This document shows, in pieces, positions 20,101 through 29,444 of a stretch of 64,000 bases of DNA. The stretch covers positions 34,086,250 to 34,150,249 of the forward strand of contig OX359249.1 in assembly GCA_947179485.1 (NCBI GenBank). The letters run 5' to 3'. This DNA comes from Allacma fusca (lineage: Eukaryota; Arthropoda; Collembola; Symphypleona; Sminthuridae). The notes under the pieces were generated by a model that saw only the letters and a list, made by a program, of their open reading frames with translations, was not told where the DNA came from and did no database searches. How positions within the stretch are numbered: position 1 is the first letter of the stretch; the number at the start of each line of letters is the position of its first letter. The position numbers were made by a program, and so were the translations under genes.

Positions 20101-20708
20101 GAAATAGTTTGAATAGAAAATTAGCATAGGGAATTATTTACTATTGTAAAAATAATTTCAAATGAAATTTCAAAAATAAAGGGTTACCTGACGAATCCAA
20201 GGGATATTCCTTCTTCGACAATGTTGTGACGGTAAAGACGTCGGGACAAAACCCATTTTTCCCTGGGTACGACGTAAACTTGCAGGTCAACCATCTGAAA
20301 TAAATTTTGATGTAAATGTGTCCCACTACTCTCTAGTGAGGAACGCGATTTGTTGGAAGTGAAAGCAGTTGTGCACAAAAGTAAGTAATTACTTGTAATG
20401 AAAAAGTAAGTTAAAGTGCAAAGTATAAAAGAAGTAGAAGTAGTTAGAAAGGAAAGGAAAAAATAGTTGAAGTAAATTCGTACCTCGAATTACCTTGTGA
20501 TTTGAGTTTTAAGTGTTAAAAGATTTTTTACTACTGGGTGGATTGCTGGTGGAAGTGTGGGATATTTTTATGCAGACGAGAATATCACCGAGTTACTTAC
20601 CATGGTATTTGGATAAGCTGCAGGAATCTTACTCTTTCTACCACTCTGATCGTATTTGTCCGCTACACTTTTTCGTCCAGTGAGATCTTTATCCTTTTTT
20701 CCACCCAT
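11126..20708 (-). CDS. Spata1: SPATA1-like protein with very long disordered insert
   Basis: Homologue of spermatogenesis-associated protein 1, probably a cilium or sperm-tail protein; its biochemical role is unknown. Coding exons: 20708-20601, 20294-20188, 18781-18664, 17530-17335, 15875-15062, 14923-13485, 13245-13112, 11804-11634, 11453-11355, 11263-11126. All are in phase, total 3324 bases, 1107 residues. Residues about 37-176 match the SPATA1 N-terminal fold: VYVVPREKW, then LPQLSVHNLRREL, RSVGNIF, and IPPFSTEPEIYILEVLP. Residues about 928-1107 match the C-terminal coiled-coil domain (RHDAELRRADLVQRANDLQ, FWHKKYIEE). Between them lie about 750 residues of Pro/Ser/Thr/Glu-rich low complexity, encoded by two large exons. 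Vertebrate SPATA1 is roughly 450 residues. The acceptor of exon 5 (AG at 15877-15876) has a poor pyrimidine tract and is the weakest junction. Confidence 0.88.
15876..17334 (-). other. SPATA1 intron 4
   Basis: Long intron with no further exon recognised. Open frames of 142 residues (-) and 113 residues (+) overlap each other at 16798-17267. Neither has family resemblance nor splice support. Confidence 0.6.
18782..20187 (-). other. SPATA1 intron 2
   Basis: AT-rich intron with no recognisable feature. The neighbouring intron 1 carries a purine-rich tract at about 20400-20470. Confidence 0.6.
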
Positions 20709-22736
20709 GGTAAAATCGTCGTAAAACTTAAGATCAATCTTGAAAGTTTATACTGTTAACTTTTCTATTTTTGTTCACTCCCAACTAATCCACCCTCAAA
20801 ATTGTTCACTAGTGTGACAGGAATTTGAATACACTTTCTGGTGAAGTGCTCAAAGCCAACAACACTGCTCGAGTTCAGTTTTGAAAATACAACAATTGTT
20901 TTGAGTTGGTGCTGTATTTATGAAGTTCTTCAACACCTACTTGTCCCAACTTGAGGAGAATTAAGGTTTTTTTTAATAACTTTCCACTTTAAATTTTAAT
21001 TATTTTCACCGTCCACTCAAGTCAGAGCTCGGTGACCAACTGAAGTTTGTGATTGTCCGAATGTACCAGCAGATAAAAGAGGATCAGGGATCACAACAAC
21101 GTTCCATAAAGCGAGGAGAAACCCACTACTCGACTGAAGGATTGACGACTGGTCAGTGAGGGATGATAATGACAAGGAGAGTGAAATGTTTTTTGAAAGA
21201 TTGACCACCACCTGCGCCAGAATGTAAAGAAATGAAAGCGGGTGCATGTTTTGTGTTGGTGGAGGCGGTCAGATTGTGTGGCATTGTGGCCTGTAGTTCT
21301 ACTTAACACCGTCCTGACCCACATTCTCAATGAGTTCATCAGATCTTGAGATCTGAGTAAAAATTCTAATATACGGGGTTTAAGACATTACACGGAAAGC
21401 ATGTAGAGCACTTCTCAATACAACAATACACTCGTGCACACCGAACAACGTATAAATCCTTCTGGATTAAGTCTGATTTACTTTCTTCGGCAGAATTATT
21501 GTTTGCTACAACTGTTCTGATTTCGAGTATCCAACTTATGCAAGTCATTTGATTCTACTAACTGCCGACTTAGTGTTAAAAACAAAAGATAAGGGGGAAC
21601 TCAAGGACTCAACCAAGTTCCCCATATTTCTTATGGAAGGGCGGGTTGTTGAGGCATAACCGATTTCTACGTTCGAAATTTTACTTCGTAATTTTTATTA
21701 ATTTGAAGGCACCCTGGTGTTGCTAGTCCAACCTGAATTCCATGACAGAGCAAATCCTTTGACGGGATTGATATAAAGGAGAAAGTTGTAGGGAGTCCAG
21801 AGTCCCTAATTCAAGTGTGTGTATGTATGTCCGGGGTGTCCACTGAAATGACAGACAATCAAGAAGTAACTGGATCCTGAATGTGCTTATGATCTCAGCG
21901 TACAGGAATATGAACGTTGAGGTGAGGGGTATACATGTGTACAAAATTGATTCGAATTTCGAGGATCTATTCACATTGAGTGTGAGAAAGGCCTTGGAAG
22001 GTTGTCTCGTCAATTGCAATTTTCGTGGTGTGAATCAGCGAGATTGATTCGAACCGGAAGTTTGTTGAGTGGTGTATTGGGTCACATATTGATTTACTAT
22101 TCGTAATATCCTGAGCTGTTGTTGAATTCAGTAACTCCCATAGTGCATACGTTAATACGATCATAGTTTTTTGGTGTTGGAGGCCATGAGTGTCTTTTCA
22201 GAAGACCTTGGCAAATTATAATCTCCACGCGATCACCTCATTGAGACCATTCTTGACGGTGTACCCCTTTGACAAGAAAACCTCCAGGGCTACAAGTACG
22301 TACTGTGTGTTGGTGTGAAAGCAGTCCCACTCAATTGTGTCGTAGTGGCTGGTTTCTGGGTGATTATGATGAACCTATAGTCGGTCTCAGGTTTTACTGG
22401 AAGTACATATCTGCCGGGATTGGCTTTCTTTTATCTGACTCCACAGTGAAGTAAATTTTGCCTTCTTGTCAATGTACCTTTCACTGTATGTATGTACGAG
22501 GTTTCGTTTGTTCTGCTTCTGCCAGCAACCGATTTATAGCCTATGGCACTTAGGAAAGTTGTACATCAAGTTTGAAGACTTGTAATTACTAGTTAATAAT
22601 GTTTTTCTATTAATGTACCTGGAATTCCTGGCAGTAATAATATTAAATTTGGCCTATTTTACAGGAACGAGTGCCGGAGAAACGGTTCTGGTTTTGGGAG
22701 GAAGGATCACTGGAAGATTTATATCCTTAGAATATA
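20709..22736. other. Shared upstream region between SPATA1 (-) and Cfp1 (+)
   Basis: About 2 kb between two divergent start codons, so it should contain both promoters. No TATA box in a convincing position and no coding exon was recognised. A small perfect palindrome (TCAGATCT-TG-AGATCTGA) lies at about 21339-21356. Confidence 0.5.
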
Positions 22737-25700
22737 ATGGCGGACCATAGAGAGGCGTCGGTGAGTATACACCAATACCTATCTACCTATTTGTATTTAG
22801 AACGTTCCTATTATGTGAGCATTGCGTACGGAAAGCAATCGTTGATTTTTGACCTTGTTTATGGTTTTCACCAAAAAAGGCTACCGGTAGTGCTAGATAG
22901 CCATGGTCATGATATTTTAAACCACCCCTTTCATGTTGCGTTTAGTCGTGTATCTACATATGTTTATGTCATTAAAATTTGTGGTTTTAGAACAAGGATA
23001 TTGCCCGCCAATTTGACTTACCGGAAAGGCAATCAAAAATAGCGACGCTTTTAAAACAAAATGATGTTTACTGTATTTGTAGATCAACGGATTCTACCAG
23101 CTTTATGATGTATGTGGATTTTCAATTAATATTTGATTATTTGTGGTTAAGAGGCAAAACGAATTAAAGCCCTTACTTGTAGATGTCCAGGTGAACAGAA
23201 CTTGCTTACTATCACCTCGATTTACCATTAATTTTACATATTTCTGTTGCATTTCGTCTTATTTTTCAAAAATAGGACTCATTTTCGTTTTGCTCTCGCC
23301 TCTCATAATCTCGTCAGAAAGGACGTGTTTCATGATATTTGAATTTTTCTTTTCAAGTGCTTGCGATAATTGTGAGGAATGGTATCACGGAGATTGCATT
23401 GGCATAACCGAGCAGGACGCCAAGTACATAAAAAAATACTTTTGCGAAAGATGTCAGGAAGAAAACTCCAGCCTTAAAATAGCTTACAAAAGTAAAAAAC
23501 CACCTTTACAACCAACTAACAAGGAAAGAAGAAGTAAAGATAAAGAGAAGGTTGACAAACGGGGAAAAGTTGGGAGACCGAAGAAAAATGAATCTAAACC
23601 AAAGAGTATGCAAACGTTTTTCATTCTTATATTAAATATGCTGTATCATTTTCAAAGAAATTTACTTCTATTAGGTGAATCGAAACATAGAAAAGAAAGG
23701 CAGGAAGAAAAACAGATCAAAGCTATTCAGCAGACGACACCTGTTAAATTACCCAAACGGCGAGGGAAAAGAAATTGGGTACCTCCGAGCAGCAGCTCCG
23801 GTGAAGATGCAAGTGGTGACGATCTCGAAATTATTCAATGTTATGGTCCAGCGTGTACTCAGGTGGCTCGTCCTGGTTCTAAATACTGCAGCGATACATG
23901 CGGCATAAATCTGGCCTCCACAAGAGTTTACCGAGTAAGTGCAAATGATTTAAGTTGCAAGGAAGGGTGCACTTAAATGATTAATCTTGTTGCAATCAAC
24001 CTATCAATTTATTTCCTTGAATGAATGTTCCCGTTTGCTTAGTGTTTGGTTCTTGTTAACTATGTCAGAAGTTGATTGTAGTACGAAGTGTACTGTTTAT
24101 GGTGTTGTTACTTTCGGTGTTAACACCTACAAGGCTTTCCTTGATTCTTGCTGAAATGGATAGTTTGCATATGTATGTAACAGATTTTCATTGGGAGTTA
24201 TTCGCCTATGTGAGCGTGATTTTTTATTGATTAGGCACTGATTTATATTTAAATAGGTTACGGCTTGTGAAATAGTACTGGGTTGTTGGATTGGGCATTT
24301 GACAAGTGACATAAAATGGAGTCGTAACTAATATTACGATTGTGTATTCGGCCTTTTCAGTCTAAAGCTTTGCAACTTAAACACGCCGAAGGATCAAAAA
24401 TAAAATCTAAAGAAAACATTTTCCATGTAGATTGCCGTATCTGTCATAAATCAAGTAGTGTATGTTGTAACTGATCTGCGAATTTACATTGAATTTCTTT
24501 GATTATAATATGTTTCTGTAGTGCATCATTCTTGTTACCATACTGTAGGGCTGATTTATTTATTATCATTAAATATATTTTGGAGAAAATAAGTAATGCA
24601 CGCTCTTCGATACTACTCTGGTAATTTAGTAAACTTGGAAATATAGCATAAAACTGAATGTACCTCAGTACTGATTGCTAATGCAGTACTAACAATAATT
24701 ATTGCAGTTATGCTTGCAGTTAGTTTGGGTGGTTGCAGTGCTTAAATTTTGCGATCTATGTGTTTGAGTTGAAGAAGGATGGGTTATTACAAAACCATAA
24801 ATGAAATTTGAGCTTACAAGTAGTTCGTAAAGTTAGTAATTTTCTTTTGAACCTTTTAGGTTCTACCTTCCAGAATCCATGAGTGGAGCTTAACGCCGTC
24901 TATTGCTGAACAGAGAAATAGAGAAGAACTTGAGGATGTGCGTAAAAAGCAGTTTTTATGCCGTAAGGAACTTGAGGAGCTTGAAACGAAGCGAAAGGTA
25001 TGTTTTTTTCGTGACATTCATGATGAATTTAATCCATGAATTCTTCATTAAAAACCTACTGAATCTTTGATTCTGTTATTTTGCTGTATAAATATTAGAA
25101 ACTAGATGAGCATATCGCCCAGGTTCAAAATTTACGGATAGATCCTAACGATGAAGAAATGGAACCGGAAGAAGATGGTGTAATGTCTTGTATTACATGT
25201 GGTCATGAAATTTCAATGAAAACGTGTATTAAACATATGGAAAAATGTTACAATAAGGTAAGTTGTGACAATAATATTGTGTAATGCTATAATATTGATC
25301 ACTTTTGTTTTGTTAAATAAACCTGCTGTTTAACGCCTGACGATGACAGTCTGTTAGCTGTCGGCAAATAAATAAAGCTTGTCATATTATTTCCATGTAA
25401 TCCAAAGAAATGGAATCTAATATTGATAATCGGCGTCTGCAGCTAACAAGGTTTTGGTTTTGATCACTGATTGTGATCTCCAGGTTTCAACCTTTTTTGG
25501 AAACAGTTGTTTCTATAATTTTATCACATATTCAGTTTAATATTTAAATTATTATTGATAAATAAGTTTTTTCTATTACAGCACGAAAGTCAAACATCGT
25601 TTGCGTCGATAGCTAAAACCAATGTGGAAGGAATACCAATATTTTGTGATTATCATAATCCTTTAAACAATTCATATTGCAAAAGGCTGAAAGTTCTTTG

Positions 25701-26308
25701 CCCGGAACATTCCAGGGAACCGAAGATTAAGGATAATGAGGTAGGTTCAAAATTATTAACCACTTGTTGTGGTCAAATTTTACGAATTTATGGCAATAAA
25801 ATGTGATATTGAATAAAATCTGTCTAGTTGTGTGGATGCCCGTTGATCAGAAATGTTTTTGAAGTCACTGATGAAATTTGCCGAGTTGCTAAGAAGAAAT
25901 GTAATCGCCATTTTTGCTGGGAAAAGTTGTATCGAGCAGAGATTGATATGGAAAGGGTTAGACAGGTCAGTAGTATTTTTGGATATAATAATCATAGACT
26001 GCAGTAGTAAAAATATGGTATGGTACAGTTAAAATTTATTATGCACAGACATTTTATATTTCTCTTGGTGTATCAGAAGAAAAGTAAAGTGAGTGAAGCA
26101 AGTACCGTAGATTGGAATTACAATAACTTAGGAATTAAATAACTTGTATAATTGAATTCAATTTCAGTGGCTCAAGTATGATGAATTATTGGAAGCAGAG
26201 AAGACTCTTCGTCAAGCCCTCACTAATAGAGCTGGTGTATTGGGTTTACTCCTTCACTCTTCATTCGACTACGACGCTGCTGTACCCGGTGTTACTCAAC
26301 CCACTTAA
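22737..26308 (+). CDS. Cfp1: CXXC1/Cfp1-like subunit of the Set1 complex, lacking CXXC
   Basis: Homologue of CXXC finger protein 1, the PHD-containing subunit of the Set1/COMPASS histone H3K4 methyltransferase (nuclear). Exons: 22737-22760, 22991-23109, 23358-23605, 23675-23934, 24860-24997, 25099-25257, 25582-25740, 25828-25965, 26168-26308. All are in phase, 461 residues. The PHD finger is at residues 35-80, with ligands C36, C38, C50, C53, H58, C61, C77 and C80. It is followed by a basic linker containing an AT-hook-like GRPKK. The C-terminal CpG-binding-protein domain is present: KYCSDTCG, a coiled coil, CITCGHE..CIKHMEKCY, ESQTSF, YCKRL.VLCPEHS, CGCPL, and CNRHFCWEKL. The CXXC zinc finger that normally sits between PHD and KYCSD is absent. 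The only intron in that interval is 69 bases (23606-23674). The animal family is usually near 650 residues. Confidence 0.95.
26035..26040 (-). terminator. Candidate poly(A) signal for AKH
   Basis: The nearest minus-strand AATAAA I found after the AKH stop lies inside Cfp1 intron 8. If it is used, the AKH 3' UTR would be antisense to the last Cfp1 exon. Confidence 0.3.
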
Positions 26309-26334
26309 GCATTTCCAATCTCATGTATCTTTCC

Positions 26335-26726
26335 TCATTTTCTTCTCTGAACATCACCAGACAACGTTTCACAACGCATGAGCTTGTGGGCTTCCAGCTA
26401 GTCCCACAAATAAATATTCAAAAAATATTTAGAATTTTTAAAAAGTTGTATGCTTTTGAATACAACTCACTATTAAAAATTAAGATATTGTTAAAATCTC
26501 TACAATTTACCTGTATCAATTTTTGTATTCGGACAACGCTATCCAACGGAATTTTGCAGTTTTCTGGGAATTGGGAAAAATCTTCGGTTCCCCCTTGAGT
26601 CATTGTCACTGAAGCGCGTTTTCCCCAACTCGGAGAAAAGTTGACTTGAGCTTCCACGACAGTTACGGCCAGGACGGCGATTGCCATCACTAGAGCAATA
26701 TAAAATCCTGCTCGAAGTTGAGACAT
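26335..26726 (-). CDS. Akh: Adipokinetic hormone (AKH) precursor
   Basis: Precursor of the insect neuropeptide that mobilises lipid and carbohydrate from the fat body, made in the corpora cardiaca. Exons are 26726-26511 (72 codons) and 26397-26335 (20 codons plus TGA), in phase, 92 residues. Residues 1-26 form a typical signal peptide ending in VVEA. They are followed directly by QVNFSPSW (27-34), Gly35 as amide donor and the Lys36-Arg37 cleavage site. The mature peptide is therefore predicted as pGlu-VNFSPSW-amide. The C-terminal associated peptide has single cysteines in ENCK and MRCE, as in other AKH precursors. An acceptor lies directly before the ATG (AG at 26728-26727), so a non-coding first exon is expected upstream. 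The first open frame runs past the donor; exon 2 (LEAHKLMRCETL) is needed to complete the protein. Confidence 0.95.
26409..26414 (+). terminator. Poly(A) signal AATAAA of Cfp1
   Basis: First plus-strand AATAAA after the Cfp1 stop at 26308. It lies beyond AKH exon 2 (26335-26397), so the Cfp1 3' UTR would cover that exon in antisense. Confidence 0.5.
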
Positions 26727-27114
26727 CTGAAAAAATATATTATTTATTAAAATGAATACTTAGGCTGTCATTCAAGATCAGACCATCCTAATGTTCTTAA
26801 ATAGAGTTTAAATTTTAAAACACCTGTCATGCAAAATATTTGCGTTAAAAAAATTTTTTTCAACAATGATTTTTGTAAGATATATTTTGTACTGCTCGCT
26901 GATAAAAATTTACCAAAACCAAAACATATTCTCCAAATTTTTAGTTTATTACTTTGTATTAAGTTTTACGAAGTTCGGTTCGGCAGAATAAATGAAAACG
27001 TTTCCAGGTAGAAGATAAAAGCGTCAAAATCGTTTTCAGAGCTTCTTCTGTGCTTGAACTTCCCTCAGAGGTAACTATGAAGAAATTGATGCCGTCTCCA
27101 TAGGTGGTCCGGAG

Positions 27115-27122
27115 TTTTTATA
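27115..27122 (-). promoter_or_regulatory. Candidate TATA box of AKH
   Basis: TATAAAAA on the minus strand (context GGTATAAAAACTCC), about 390 bases upstream of the AKH start codon. Transcription would begin near 27085-27092 with a short 5' exon spliced to the acceptor before the ATG. Strong TATA boxes are common for neuropeptide genes; the start site is inferred. Confidence 0.5.
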
Positions 27123-29444
27123 CCGCGGAAAGTAATTTCGGGGATGGATATTTCAAGTGGGCAAATGTCAAGTCTGAAAAACAACAGCGTAGACAGGTAG
27201 ACAGATATAAAATAGATTACTTGCATTTAAAAGCACTGACCCATTCTTGATTTATAGACCATCAGACGCCTCTTCACTTTTAGACCTAGGTGTACGATCT
27301 GCTACAACTTCATCATCATCGTCATCTAGAGTAACTAGAATTCTTAAGCTACAAGTATACTCTTAACTTTTGATACTGTTTTTCTCAATTCAGTTTTAGC
27401 TCTTCATTCTTACACATTTCTGGCTTTAGATTATTTTTCCAATTTGAACCACTCAAATACCTTGATACCATGTATTTTCCATTTTATGATGCGTAGATAT
27501 TACATGCAACTCAAGTGCTTTCACCCCTATTACAGTATCGGGTGTAGATTGATGACTAACTAAGAAAAGTTACTTGTTACTGCTTCAAGTGTAAGCCTGA
27601 ATATCGTCCCATGTTCCGAGCATTTCCTAAACTACCTCTCGAAAATTGCTAGCTTCGAATGGCAAAGTAAACTTTGTTTTTGTGGTAAAGTTTTGAAAAA
27701 CGTTTCACATAGAAGGTACTTACGGAAATGAAAATGTACTTGATGTCAGCTTGCCATATAGTATGTATCATATAACACGTACATGACTGGTTGATCAATC
27801 AGTGTAAGCCTTGACGAAGTTGTAGCTACCGTAAACAATTTTCTCCCGGCTGCTACAAAAACGACATGATCCTAGTTTTTGAGTGTGAATGCAAACAATT
27901 CCAACCCTGATTTTTATACCATCACGTTTAGACTAGTTTAGAATTTATAGTATCGTGTTATACTGCATTACTATACTGAGCATCTGCCTTGTTAAAAGGA
28001 TACGTTCGAGTTGTGGCGATCGAATCAATTTGATTTGAGACAGAGCCATAAATACCAAATAAACGTTTCTCCAAGCGTGGCAATCCAACAGCCGTGGTGC
28101 TTATGTTCCGCCTAGACTTGCACGTTAGCATGTAAGCTTTTATATGTTGTCTGGCAAGATAAACACATTCGACAGTATGAATCAAAATACACATACAAAC
28201 TCTGCGAACACATATGTGTTTGTAAGATATAGAATGTGTAGTTCACTGTACAGCTTTTTAATATTCGAAAATACCACACAGAATTAGCTCTTGAGTTGGT
28301 AAAACATTCTCACAAATATGCATAGTTATGTGACCTTAACTTTTTGGTACGAAAATAACTTCTTTCCCACCCACATCCACTTATCCGGCCGTTGTATCCT
28401 TGGTGGGTCAGAAAATGTTAAGCGAAAAACCGTACAACATTTAGGTTATTTTAAGGGCGACTATAAAGTACCATTCTAAGTTAAGGAATTCAGGTTTACA
28501 GTGGTACAATATAAAATCAAGAGAACGCAAGGAACAAGGTCAAATTGTGTGGTAATGGGAGCAACATTTAATTCATATTAGAGGCTTTCTTCACGGCTTG
28601 TCACTTGGCGTTTCCCGTTTTCAAGAATTTCGGTTCACTTCTGTTTTGCTGCATGCTGCAGTAATGGCATGACAGAAAAAGTAACGTTTACAAGATGCAA
28701 GGACCCGCATGAATGAGAAATAGTGTCACAGAAACCTCACTTCTAGTTCAATCTACTTTCACTGGTGGAAATGAGTACAGTTTGCATTCAAACGGAAAGT
28801 TTATGTACATTTTTAAGGTTATGTAGTAATACATGGCGGGCTTCACAGATTTTTCACTCTTACCCGTTAGGAATAGACTCCCAATCAGTACAGTGATGGC
28901 GAGGTTATTATTACACTTCATAAAGCACCTGGTAGTTTTCTTCTGCTATGAGAAAAATCAAGTGTTAAAGCTTTTATTGAGGTATTTTATTTTGGTCATG
29001 AGTAAGTACTTGTACTACAAACAATCTCCTCAAAAGATTTCACGAGTCTCATTCATACTTGAAAGTCAAAGTAGTTCTACTTTTACGCAGCACCAAATTA
29101 TAACGCGTCTATTCGACTATTTCAAACATTTGTGAGAGTTTCGCATTTCTTATGACTCTCAGTCAGACTGCTTTAACTTTCCACGGTCAGACTATTTTGG
29201 TATTAAGTCATCCACGACACGTCGACACAACAACTATTGCTTTTTTTATGATAGGTGAGATACGTGGAAATGTAAGTACGTAGACTGTTGTAAAGTAAAG
29301 GGAGTGTTCCCGATTGATTTGATTTTAAATAAAATATAGGAAATAAAAATCCGGAGCTGTATTTATTTGATAGTTTGAACTGCCTCCAAAGGTCAATAAT
29401 TCCCATGACTTTAGTTAACATGAAATGTAACCTTTGGGTAATTA
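27123..29444. other. Intergenic region between AKH and RSPH3
   Basis: About 2.3 kb, AT-rich, with no coding exon recognised. It should contain AKH upstream control sequence and the RSPH3 3' UTR (minus-strand AATAAA at 29362-29367). A short CATCATCATCGTCATC run lies near 27310. Confidence 0.5.

What the first reader, a model, noticed from the sequence alone, without database searches (positions are those of the whole stretch)
22737..26308. Cfp1/CXXC1 without its CXXC zinc finger
The PHD exon ends in a basic AT-hook-like stretch (GRPKK) and joins, across a 69-base intron, an exon that leads directly to the KYCSDTCG block. There is no room for the CXXC finger that gives the family its name and binds unmethylated CpG. 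The PHD finger and C-terminal domain are otherwise complete. Yeast Spp1 also lacks CXXC, so Set1 targeting by PHD alone is possible. Loss in an insect would suggest CpG-independent targeting, possibly tied to the state of DNA methylation in this lineage.
Basis: partly seen in the sequence, partly recalled or inferred. Interest (0 to 1): 0.75.

Follow-up and report, generated by a model that had tools for sequence, protein, structure and literature searches.

The report
Springtail Cfp1 without CXXC finger
In this springtail genome the only gene found for Cfp1, a protein that helps place an activating mark at gene starts, has completely lost the zinc finger that reads unmethylated CpG DNA; similar loss is already reported for flies, and it fits a lineage that appears to have given up DNA methylation.

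Summary
Window 22737-26308 carries a Cfp1/CXXC1 gene (461 aa without one doubtful exon) with intact PHD finger, SID cysteine motif and full CpG_bind_C domain, but no zf-CXXC. The 101-residue PHD-to-SID linker has no cysteine, the window has no gaps, and no CXXC-like frame was seen at 20500-28500. Genome searches found one Cfp1 gene, and zf-CXXC above cut-off only in KDM2 and a TET-type (type-3) gene. 'Insect' is wrong: assembly size, chromosome lengths and mitochondrial size match Allacma fusca, a springtail; the gene is on X1. Loss fits the methylation state: only Dnmt2 was found among DNA-methylase genes, and a published springtail genome lacks Dnmt1 and Dnmt3. Further, KDM2's CXXC keeps eight cysteines but has lost KFGG and the CpG-contacting KQ/RQ. 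So no canonical type-1 CpG-reading CXXC was found; a type-3 finger remains. Most likely Set1 is guided by PHD binding of H3K4me3 and by complex and transcription contacts, as for yeast Spp1. A review already states that Drosophila Cfp1 lacks a functional CXXC, so this is a further instance of a known kind. Not settled: transcripts, other springtails, absence of Dnmt1.

The parts
22737..22760 (+). Cfp1 exon 1 (start codon)
22991..23109 (+). Cfp1 exon 2, first part of PHD finger (PHD = 23072-23454 across the intron)
23358..23605 (+). Cfp1 exon 3, rest of PHD finger and basic linker with GRPKK at 23572-23586
23458..23829 (+). Place where CXXC would lie: linker residues 82-182, no cysteine, interrupted by the 69-base intron
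23606..23674 (+). 69-base intron, 77% A+T, open in frame, no cysteine codon in that frame
23675..23934 (+). Cfp1 exon 4: end of linker, CYGPAC...KYCSDTCG motif (23839-23904)
24361..24459 (+). Doubtful in-frame 33-codon piece; no Pfam match and no more than chance expects
24860..24997 (+). Cfp1 exon, CpG_bind_C
25099..25257 (+). Cfp1 exon, CpG_bind_C
25582..25740 (+). Cfp1 exon, CpG_bind_C
25828..25965 (+). Cfp1 exon with RID zinc motif II CRVAKKKCNRHFCW (25879-25920)
26168..26308 (+). Cfp1 last exon with stop

Best explanation
This is the single Cfp1/CXXC1 orthologue found in the springtail Allacma fusca, from which the CXXC finger has been completely removed while PHD, Set1-interaction and RbBP5-interaction parts are kept. 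It most likely still works as the Set1/COMPASS subunit, placed by PHD binding to H3K4me3 and by contacts through Set1, RbBP5 and transcription, as yeast Spp1 is. The CXXC was probably lost because the distinction it reads, unmethylated versus methylated CpG, disappeared when the lineage lost Dnmt1/Dnmt3 methylation. Shown here: absence of the domain, single locus found, intact other domains, an N-SET exon (Set1) in the genome, a degenerate KDM2 CXXC. Inferred: protein function, targeting route, cause and order of loss.
For: Complete PHD and CpG_bind_C, no CXXC; PHD aligns over 60 residues with the solved PHD of a CXXC-type zinc finger protein 1 (9c0o, 2.6e-24) and keeps Trp56; RID zinc motif II of PMC7145517 matched; open reading over 9 exons, 8 GT-AG introns; one locus; zf-CXXC above cut-off only at 2 other genes; N-SET exon, 51.6 bits; only Dnmt2 among DNA-methylase genes; springtail Holacanthella: Dnmt2 and Tet1 found, Dnmt1 and Dnmt3 not, unimodal CpG o/e; KDM2 CXXC lost KFGG and KQ; Drosophila precedent.
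Against: No RNA data, so a distant exon is not formally excluded. Dnmt1 absence rests on searches of limited power: Tet_JBP found nothing although a TET-type CXXC exon is present, and the SRA and DNMT1-RFD searches rang in no control. PMC7343188 found DNMT1 in all its arthropod species apart from five Diptera. The remaining type-3 finger (with HQ) is of a type reported to bind non-methylated cytosine, CpG included, so CpG reading is not wholly gone. C. elegans CFP-1 is reported to keep CXXC and lack PHD; that worm lacks classical 5mC (recalled), so methylation loss need not cost the finger. In mouse cells CXXC mutation abolished CFP1 binding at non-methylated islands, so PHD alone would need help.
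Confidence: 0.8

Rival explanations
1. The CXXC is not lost but encoded by an exon missed in the genome reading (small, far or intron-split) or by a second Cfp1 gene.
For: No transcript data; the family search works exon by exon and could miss a domain split by an intron (note).
Against: No N in the window; only the 69-base intron lies between PHD and SID, the 248-base one lies inside the PHD coding stretch; no CXXC pattern in 20500-28500; the genome search recovered even the degenerate KDM2 and the type-3 finger but no third real one; a single CpG_bind_C gene.
Confidence: 0.05
2. The basic linker with the AT-hook-like GRPKK has taken over DNA binding, so that Set1 is now steered by AT-rich minor groove instead of CpG.
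For: GRPKK with basic neighbours; pattern [KR]xGRP[KR][KR] arises in 0.045% of 20,000 shuffles of the linker; 30 K/R in 101 residues.
Against: No Pfam AT-hook match for the linker; the one match at E up to 10 was an unrelated family at E 5.3. The motif was chosen after it was seen, so the shuffle figure is too flattering; lysine-rich linkers are ordinary; no relative was available to test conservation.
Confidence: 0.12
3. The gene is decaying after loss of the CXXC and no longer serves Set1.
For: A defining domain is gone.
Against: Other domains complete, no stop or frameshift over 9 exons, GT-AG introns. Selection was not measured.
Confidence: 0.03

Closest known systems
Mammalian CFP1/CXXC1
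   Same: PHD, SID and C-terminal region in the same order (layout)
   Different: CXXC finger absent; protein 461 aa instead of about 656 (recalled)
Drosophila Cfp1 (CG17446)
   Same: Described in a review as not encoding a functional ZF-CxxC, in a lineage without CpG methylation
   Different: The passage gives no sequence; from memory the fly keeps a degenerate cysteine-bearing stretch, whereas here the linker has no cysteine. Not tested
Yeast Spp1/Cps40
   Same: PHD plus RID zinc motif, no CXXC
   Different: Fungal, with no animal-type CpG methylation history (recalled); PHD match weaker, E 8.6e-10 to 9.1e-8 over the three Spp1 sequences listed
C. elegans CFP-1
   Same: One reader domain lost
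   Different: Opposite loss: lacks PHD, keeps CXXC
KDM2B/KDM2A CXXC-PHD (for the genome's KDM2)
   Same: Eight cysteines and the following PHD kept
   Different: KFGG aligns with KSKD and KQ with LK, so it resembles the type-2 fingers of PMC3685328, which lost the CpG-contact pair

Membership tests
Cfp1/CXXC1 | N-terminal H3K4me-reading PHD finger | tested here: met
   Pfam PHD 36-80, E 1.1e-10; C4HC3 pattern and Trp56; peptide binding not tested
Cfp1/CXXC1 | CpG_bind_C domain | tested here: met
   310.6 bits, profile positions 1-236 of 236
Cfp1/CXXC1 | zf-CXXC finger | tested here: not met
   No match at E<=1 in protein, no cysteine in linker, none in frames of 20500-28500
Cfp1/CXXC1 | Binding to Set1 complex | not testable with these tools
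   An N-SET exon is present in the genome; binding itself needs experiment
CXXC-less Spp1-like COMPASS subunit | PHD plus RID zinc motif CXXX[KR]XXCXXHXXW without CXXC | tested here: met
   CRVAKKKCNRHFCW at 387-400; motif from PMC7145517
Type-1 ZF-CxxC (KDM2 of this genome) | Eight cysteines | tested here: met
   Pattern match; alignment with 4o64
Type-1 ZF-CxxC (KDM2 of this genome) | KFGG motif and CpG-contacting KQ or RQ | tested here: not met
   KFGG aligns with KSKD, KQ with LK; neither motif present; definition
AT-hook | Pfam-detectable GRP core with basic flanks | tested here: inconclusive
   GRPKK at 120-124 but no Pfam AT-hook match; short motifs are easily missed by HMMER filters

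The most novel reading that the evidence does not exclude
Springtails have dismantled their whole type-1 unmethylated-CpG reading toolkit (Cfp1 finger deleted, KDM2 finger blunted at the CpG contacts, Dnmt1 gone) and Set1 has been re-aimed through an AT-hook-like linker in Cfp1, so promoters are found by H3K4me3 plus AT-rich DNA.
Probability: 0.1. Interest if true: 0.65.

Novelty: new member of a known kind. Interest (0 to 1): 0.38.

Why it matters
It gives a natural case, outside insects and outside Diptera, where the CpG reader of Set1/COMPASS has been fully deleted while its H3K4me3 reader stays. Together with the blunted KDM2 finger it suggests that type-1 CpG-reading fingers decay together once CpG methylation is lost, which can be tested across springtails and their methylating relatives.

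Tried and rejected
Second Cfp1 gene: rejected, the four CpG_bind_C matches all lie in this gene. Hidden CXXC exon: rejected by pattern scan and genome family search. The third weak zf-CXXC match (L024) reads as a 43-aa chance frame. The 33-codon piece 24361-24459: it is in all four enumerated models only because I asked for it; it would break a stretch that CpG_bind_C covers without it, has no Pfam match, and intron 23935-24859 holds 10 such open AG..GT pieces of 60-150 bases against a mean of 8.31 in 300 shuffles; treated as doubtful. Diptera as host: rejected by TTAGG arrays near the end of C1 (that Diptera lack TTAGG is recalled). Heteropteran or other insect host, suggested by the AKH octapeptide: rejected once assembly figures matched Allacma fusca. 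Dnmt1 absence could not be proved: DNMT1-RFD and SRA found nothing but rang in no control, and Tet_JBP also found nothing in this genome although a TET-type CXXC exon is present. The control genomes of these searches give no help for animal domains. Comparison with other springtail genomes was not possible: G000 has no relatives here and I ran no search of another sequence collection. Two Drosophila COMPASS papers were not held. Structure prediction was not tried, since the spliced protein is not a single frame of the window.

Full report
What is there. The region encodes Cfp1/CXXC1. Enumerating splice sites around the exons gave four open solutions that differ only at exon 2's acceptor and exon 4's donor and share the same exon 3 to exon 4 join. 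All four include a doubtful 33-codon piece; I left it out and the rest still reads open as 461 aa. Pfam finds PHD at 36-80 and CpG_bind_C at 211-443 over its whole length, and no zf-CXXC at E up to 1. The linker after the PHD, residues 82-182, is 101 residues, contains 30 K/R and no cysteine. The 69-base intron (23606-23674) is 77% A+T and in frame; read through, it adds no cysteine.

Could the finger be elsewhere? The window has no N. The first five CXXC cysteines, or [KR][FY]GG, occur in no frame of 20500-28500. In the assembly zf-CXXC matches above the family cut-off occur at 2 places; a third, at E 0.92, is a short frame that looks like chance. One of the two is KDM2: beside a JmjC-like exon (below Pfam cut-offs) and a PHD_4 exon (4.7e-15), and aligned with KDM2B, FBXL19 and KDM2A over CXXC plus PHD. 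The other aligns best with TET, CXXC4 and CXXC5 type-3 fingers; I take it for TET, by inference, since the catalytic domain search found nothing. CpG_bind_C has 4 matches and all fall in this gene.

Which organism. The assembly held has 392,743,791 bases in 91 contigs, C1 of 81,893,619, C5 of 55,591,601 and a 14,936-base mitochondrial contig. The genome note for Allacma fusca (PMC10427803; abstract and passages seen) gives 392,786,974 bases in 95 scaffolds, longest 81,897,997, X1 of 55.59 Mb and a 14.94-kb mitochondrion. The small differences suggest another version of the same assembly. TTAGG arrays near the end of C1 fit a non-dipteran. The host is therefore a globular springtail, class Collembola, and the window lies on X1.

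Methylation state. The DNA-methylase family gave 2 matches, adjacent parts of one gene; the larger part aligns best with Dnmt2 tRNA methyltransferases. DNMT1-RFD and SRA gave nothing, but no control rang either, so Dnmt1 absence is likely, not proved. The Holacanthella duospinosa springtail genome paper (PMC5644144; abstract and passages seen) reports three Dnmt2 orthologues and Tet1, no Dnmt1 or Dnmt3, and unimodal CpG o/e with genome mean 0.79; this window has 0.77. Against an easy generalisation, PMC7343188 (passages seen) found DNMT1 in all its arthropods apart from five Diptera.

A further finding: KDM2. The KDM2 finger keeps eight cysteines, but KDM2B's KFGG aligns with KSKD and its KQ with LK. 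In the scheme of PMC3685328 (passages seen), KFGG and KQ/RQ mark type-1 CpG-binding fingers and their loss marks type 2. Thus no canonical type-1 CpG-binding CXXC was found in this assembly. The type-3 finger with HQ remains, and type-3 fingers are reported to bind non-methylated cytosine, CpG included. Whether other arthropod KDM2 proteins share the change was not tested; one paper on dKDM2 (passage seen, PMC6131532) lists a CXXC finger for the fly without detail.

Function. Cfp1's remaining parts are those that PMC7145517 (passages seen) ties to COMPASS: SID, and the RID zinc motif II, which is matched here. That paper also states that the budding and fission yeast homologues lack CXXC. An N-SET exon, taken as Set1, was found. 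In mouse cells CXXC mutation abolished CFP1 binding to non-methylated islands and PHD mutation reduced it strongly (PMC5603731, passages seen). The simplest reading is a Spp1-like mode: PHD plus complex and transcription contacts. This is inference. The AT-hook-like GRPKK is a possible aid: its extended pattern occurs in 0.045% of 20,000 linker shuffles, but it was chosen after being seen and no Pfam AT-hook match supports it.

Known or new. [quoted passage not shown] C. elegans CFP-1 instead keeps CXXC and lacks PHD (PMC6868398, passages seen). Paper searches for Cfp1 with CXXC, insect, invertebrate or KDM2 terms, of which I saw only the best-ranked listings (15-25 rows) apart from the papers named, showed no title or abstract on Cfp1 in springtails. 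A search for papers holding both Cfp1 and Collembola found 0; one with CXXC1, Cfp1, Collembola and springtail listed 10 of 1,293, none with Cfp1 or CXXC1. This covers only the held open-access library. The finding is real and coherent but a further instance of a known trend, with the full deletion and the KDM2 change as its newer parts.

Noticed in passing
L001:1501-1638 (G000:C5:18601775-18601912, minus strand): KDM2 CXXC finger keeps eight cysteines but has lost KFGG and the KQ/RQ CpG contact.
   Followed up: partly
window 26418-26759, minus strand: Frame reading like an adipokinetic hormone precursor with QVNFSPSWGKR; the octapeptide matches Anaim-AKH, pEVNFSPSW amide, of PMC10926376. It lies just downstream of Cfp1 on the other strand.
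   Followed up: partly
window 24361-24459: In-frame 33-codon piece with AG/GT borders inside a conserved stretch of Cfp1; a possible alternative exon, but chance explains it.
   Followed up: partly
G000 C5, C8, C12 (COX1 matches): 13 COX1 matches in all, one on the 14.9-kb mitochondrial contig C91 and 12 on C5, C8 and C12; four of the 12 span nearly the whole family profile, so mitochondrial copies seem to lie in the nucleus.
   Followed up: no
G000:C5:31261317-31261652 and C5:31354060-31355342: The N-SET exon (Set1) and Dnmt2 lie about 92 kb apart on the same X1 chromosome that carries Cfp1.
   Followed up: no
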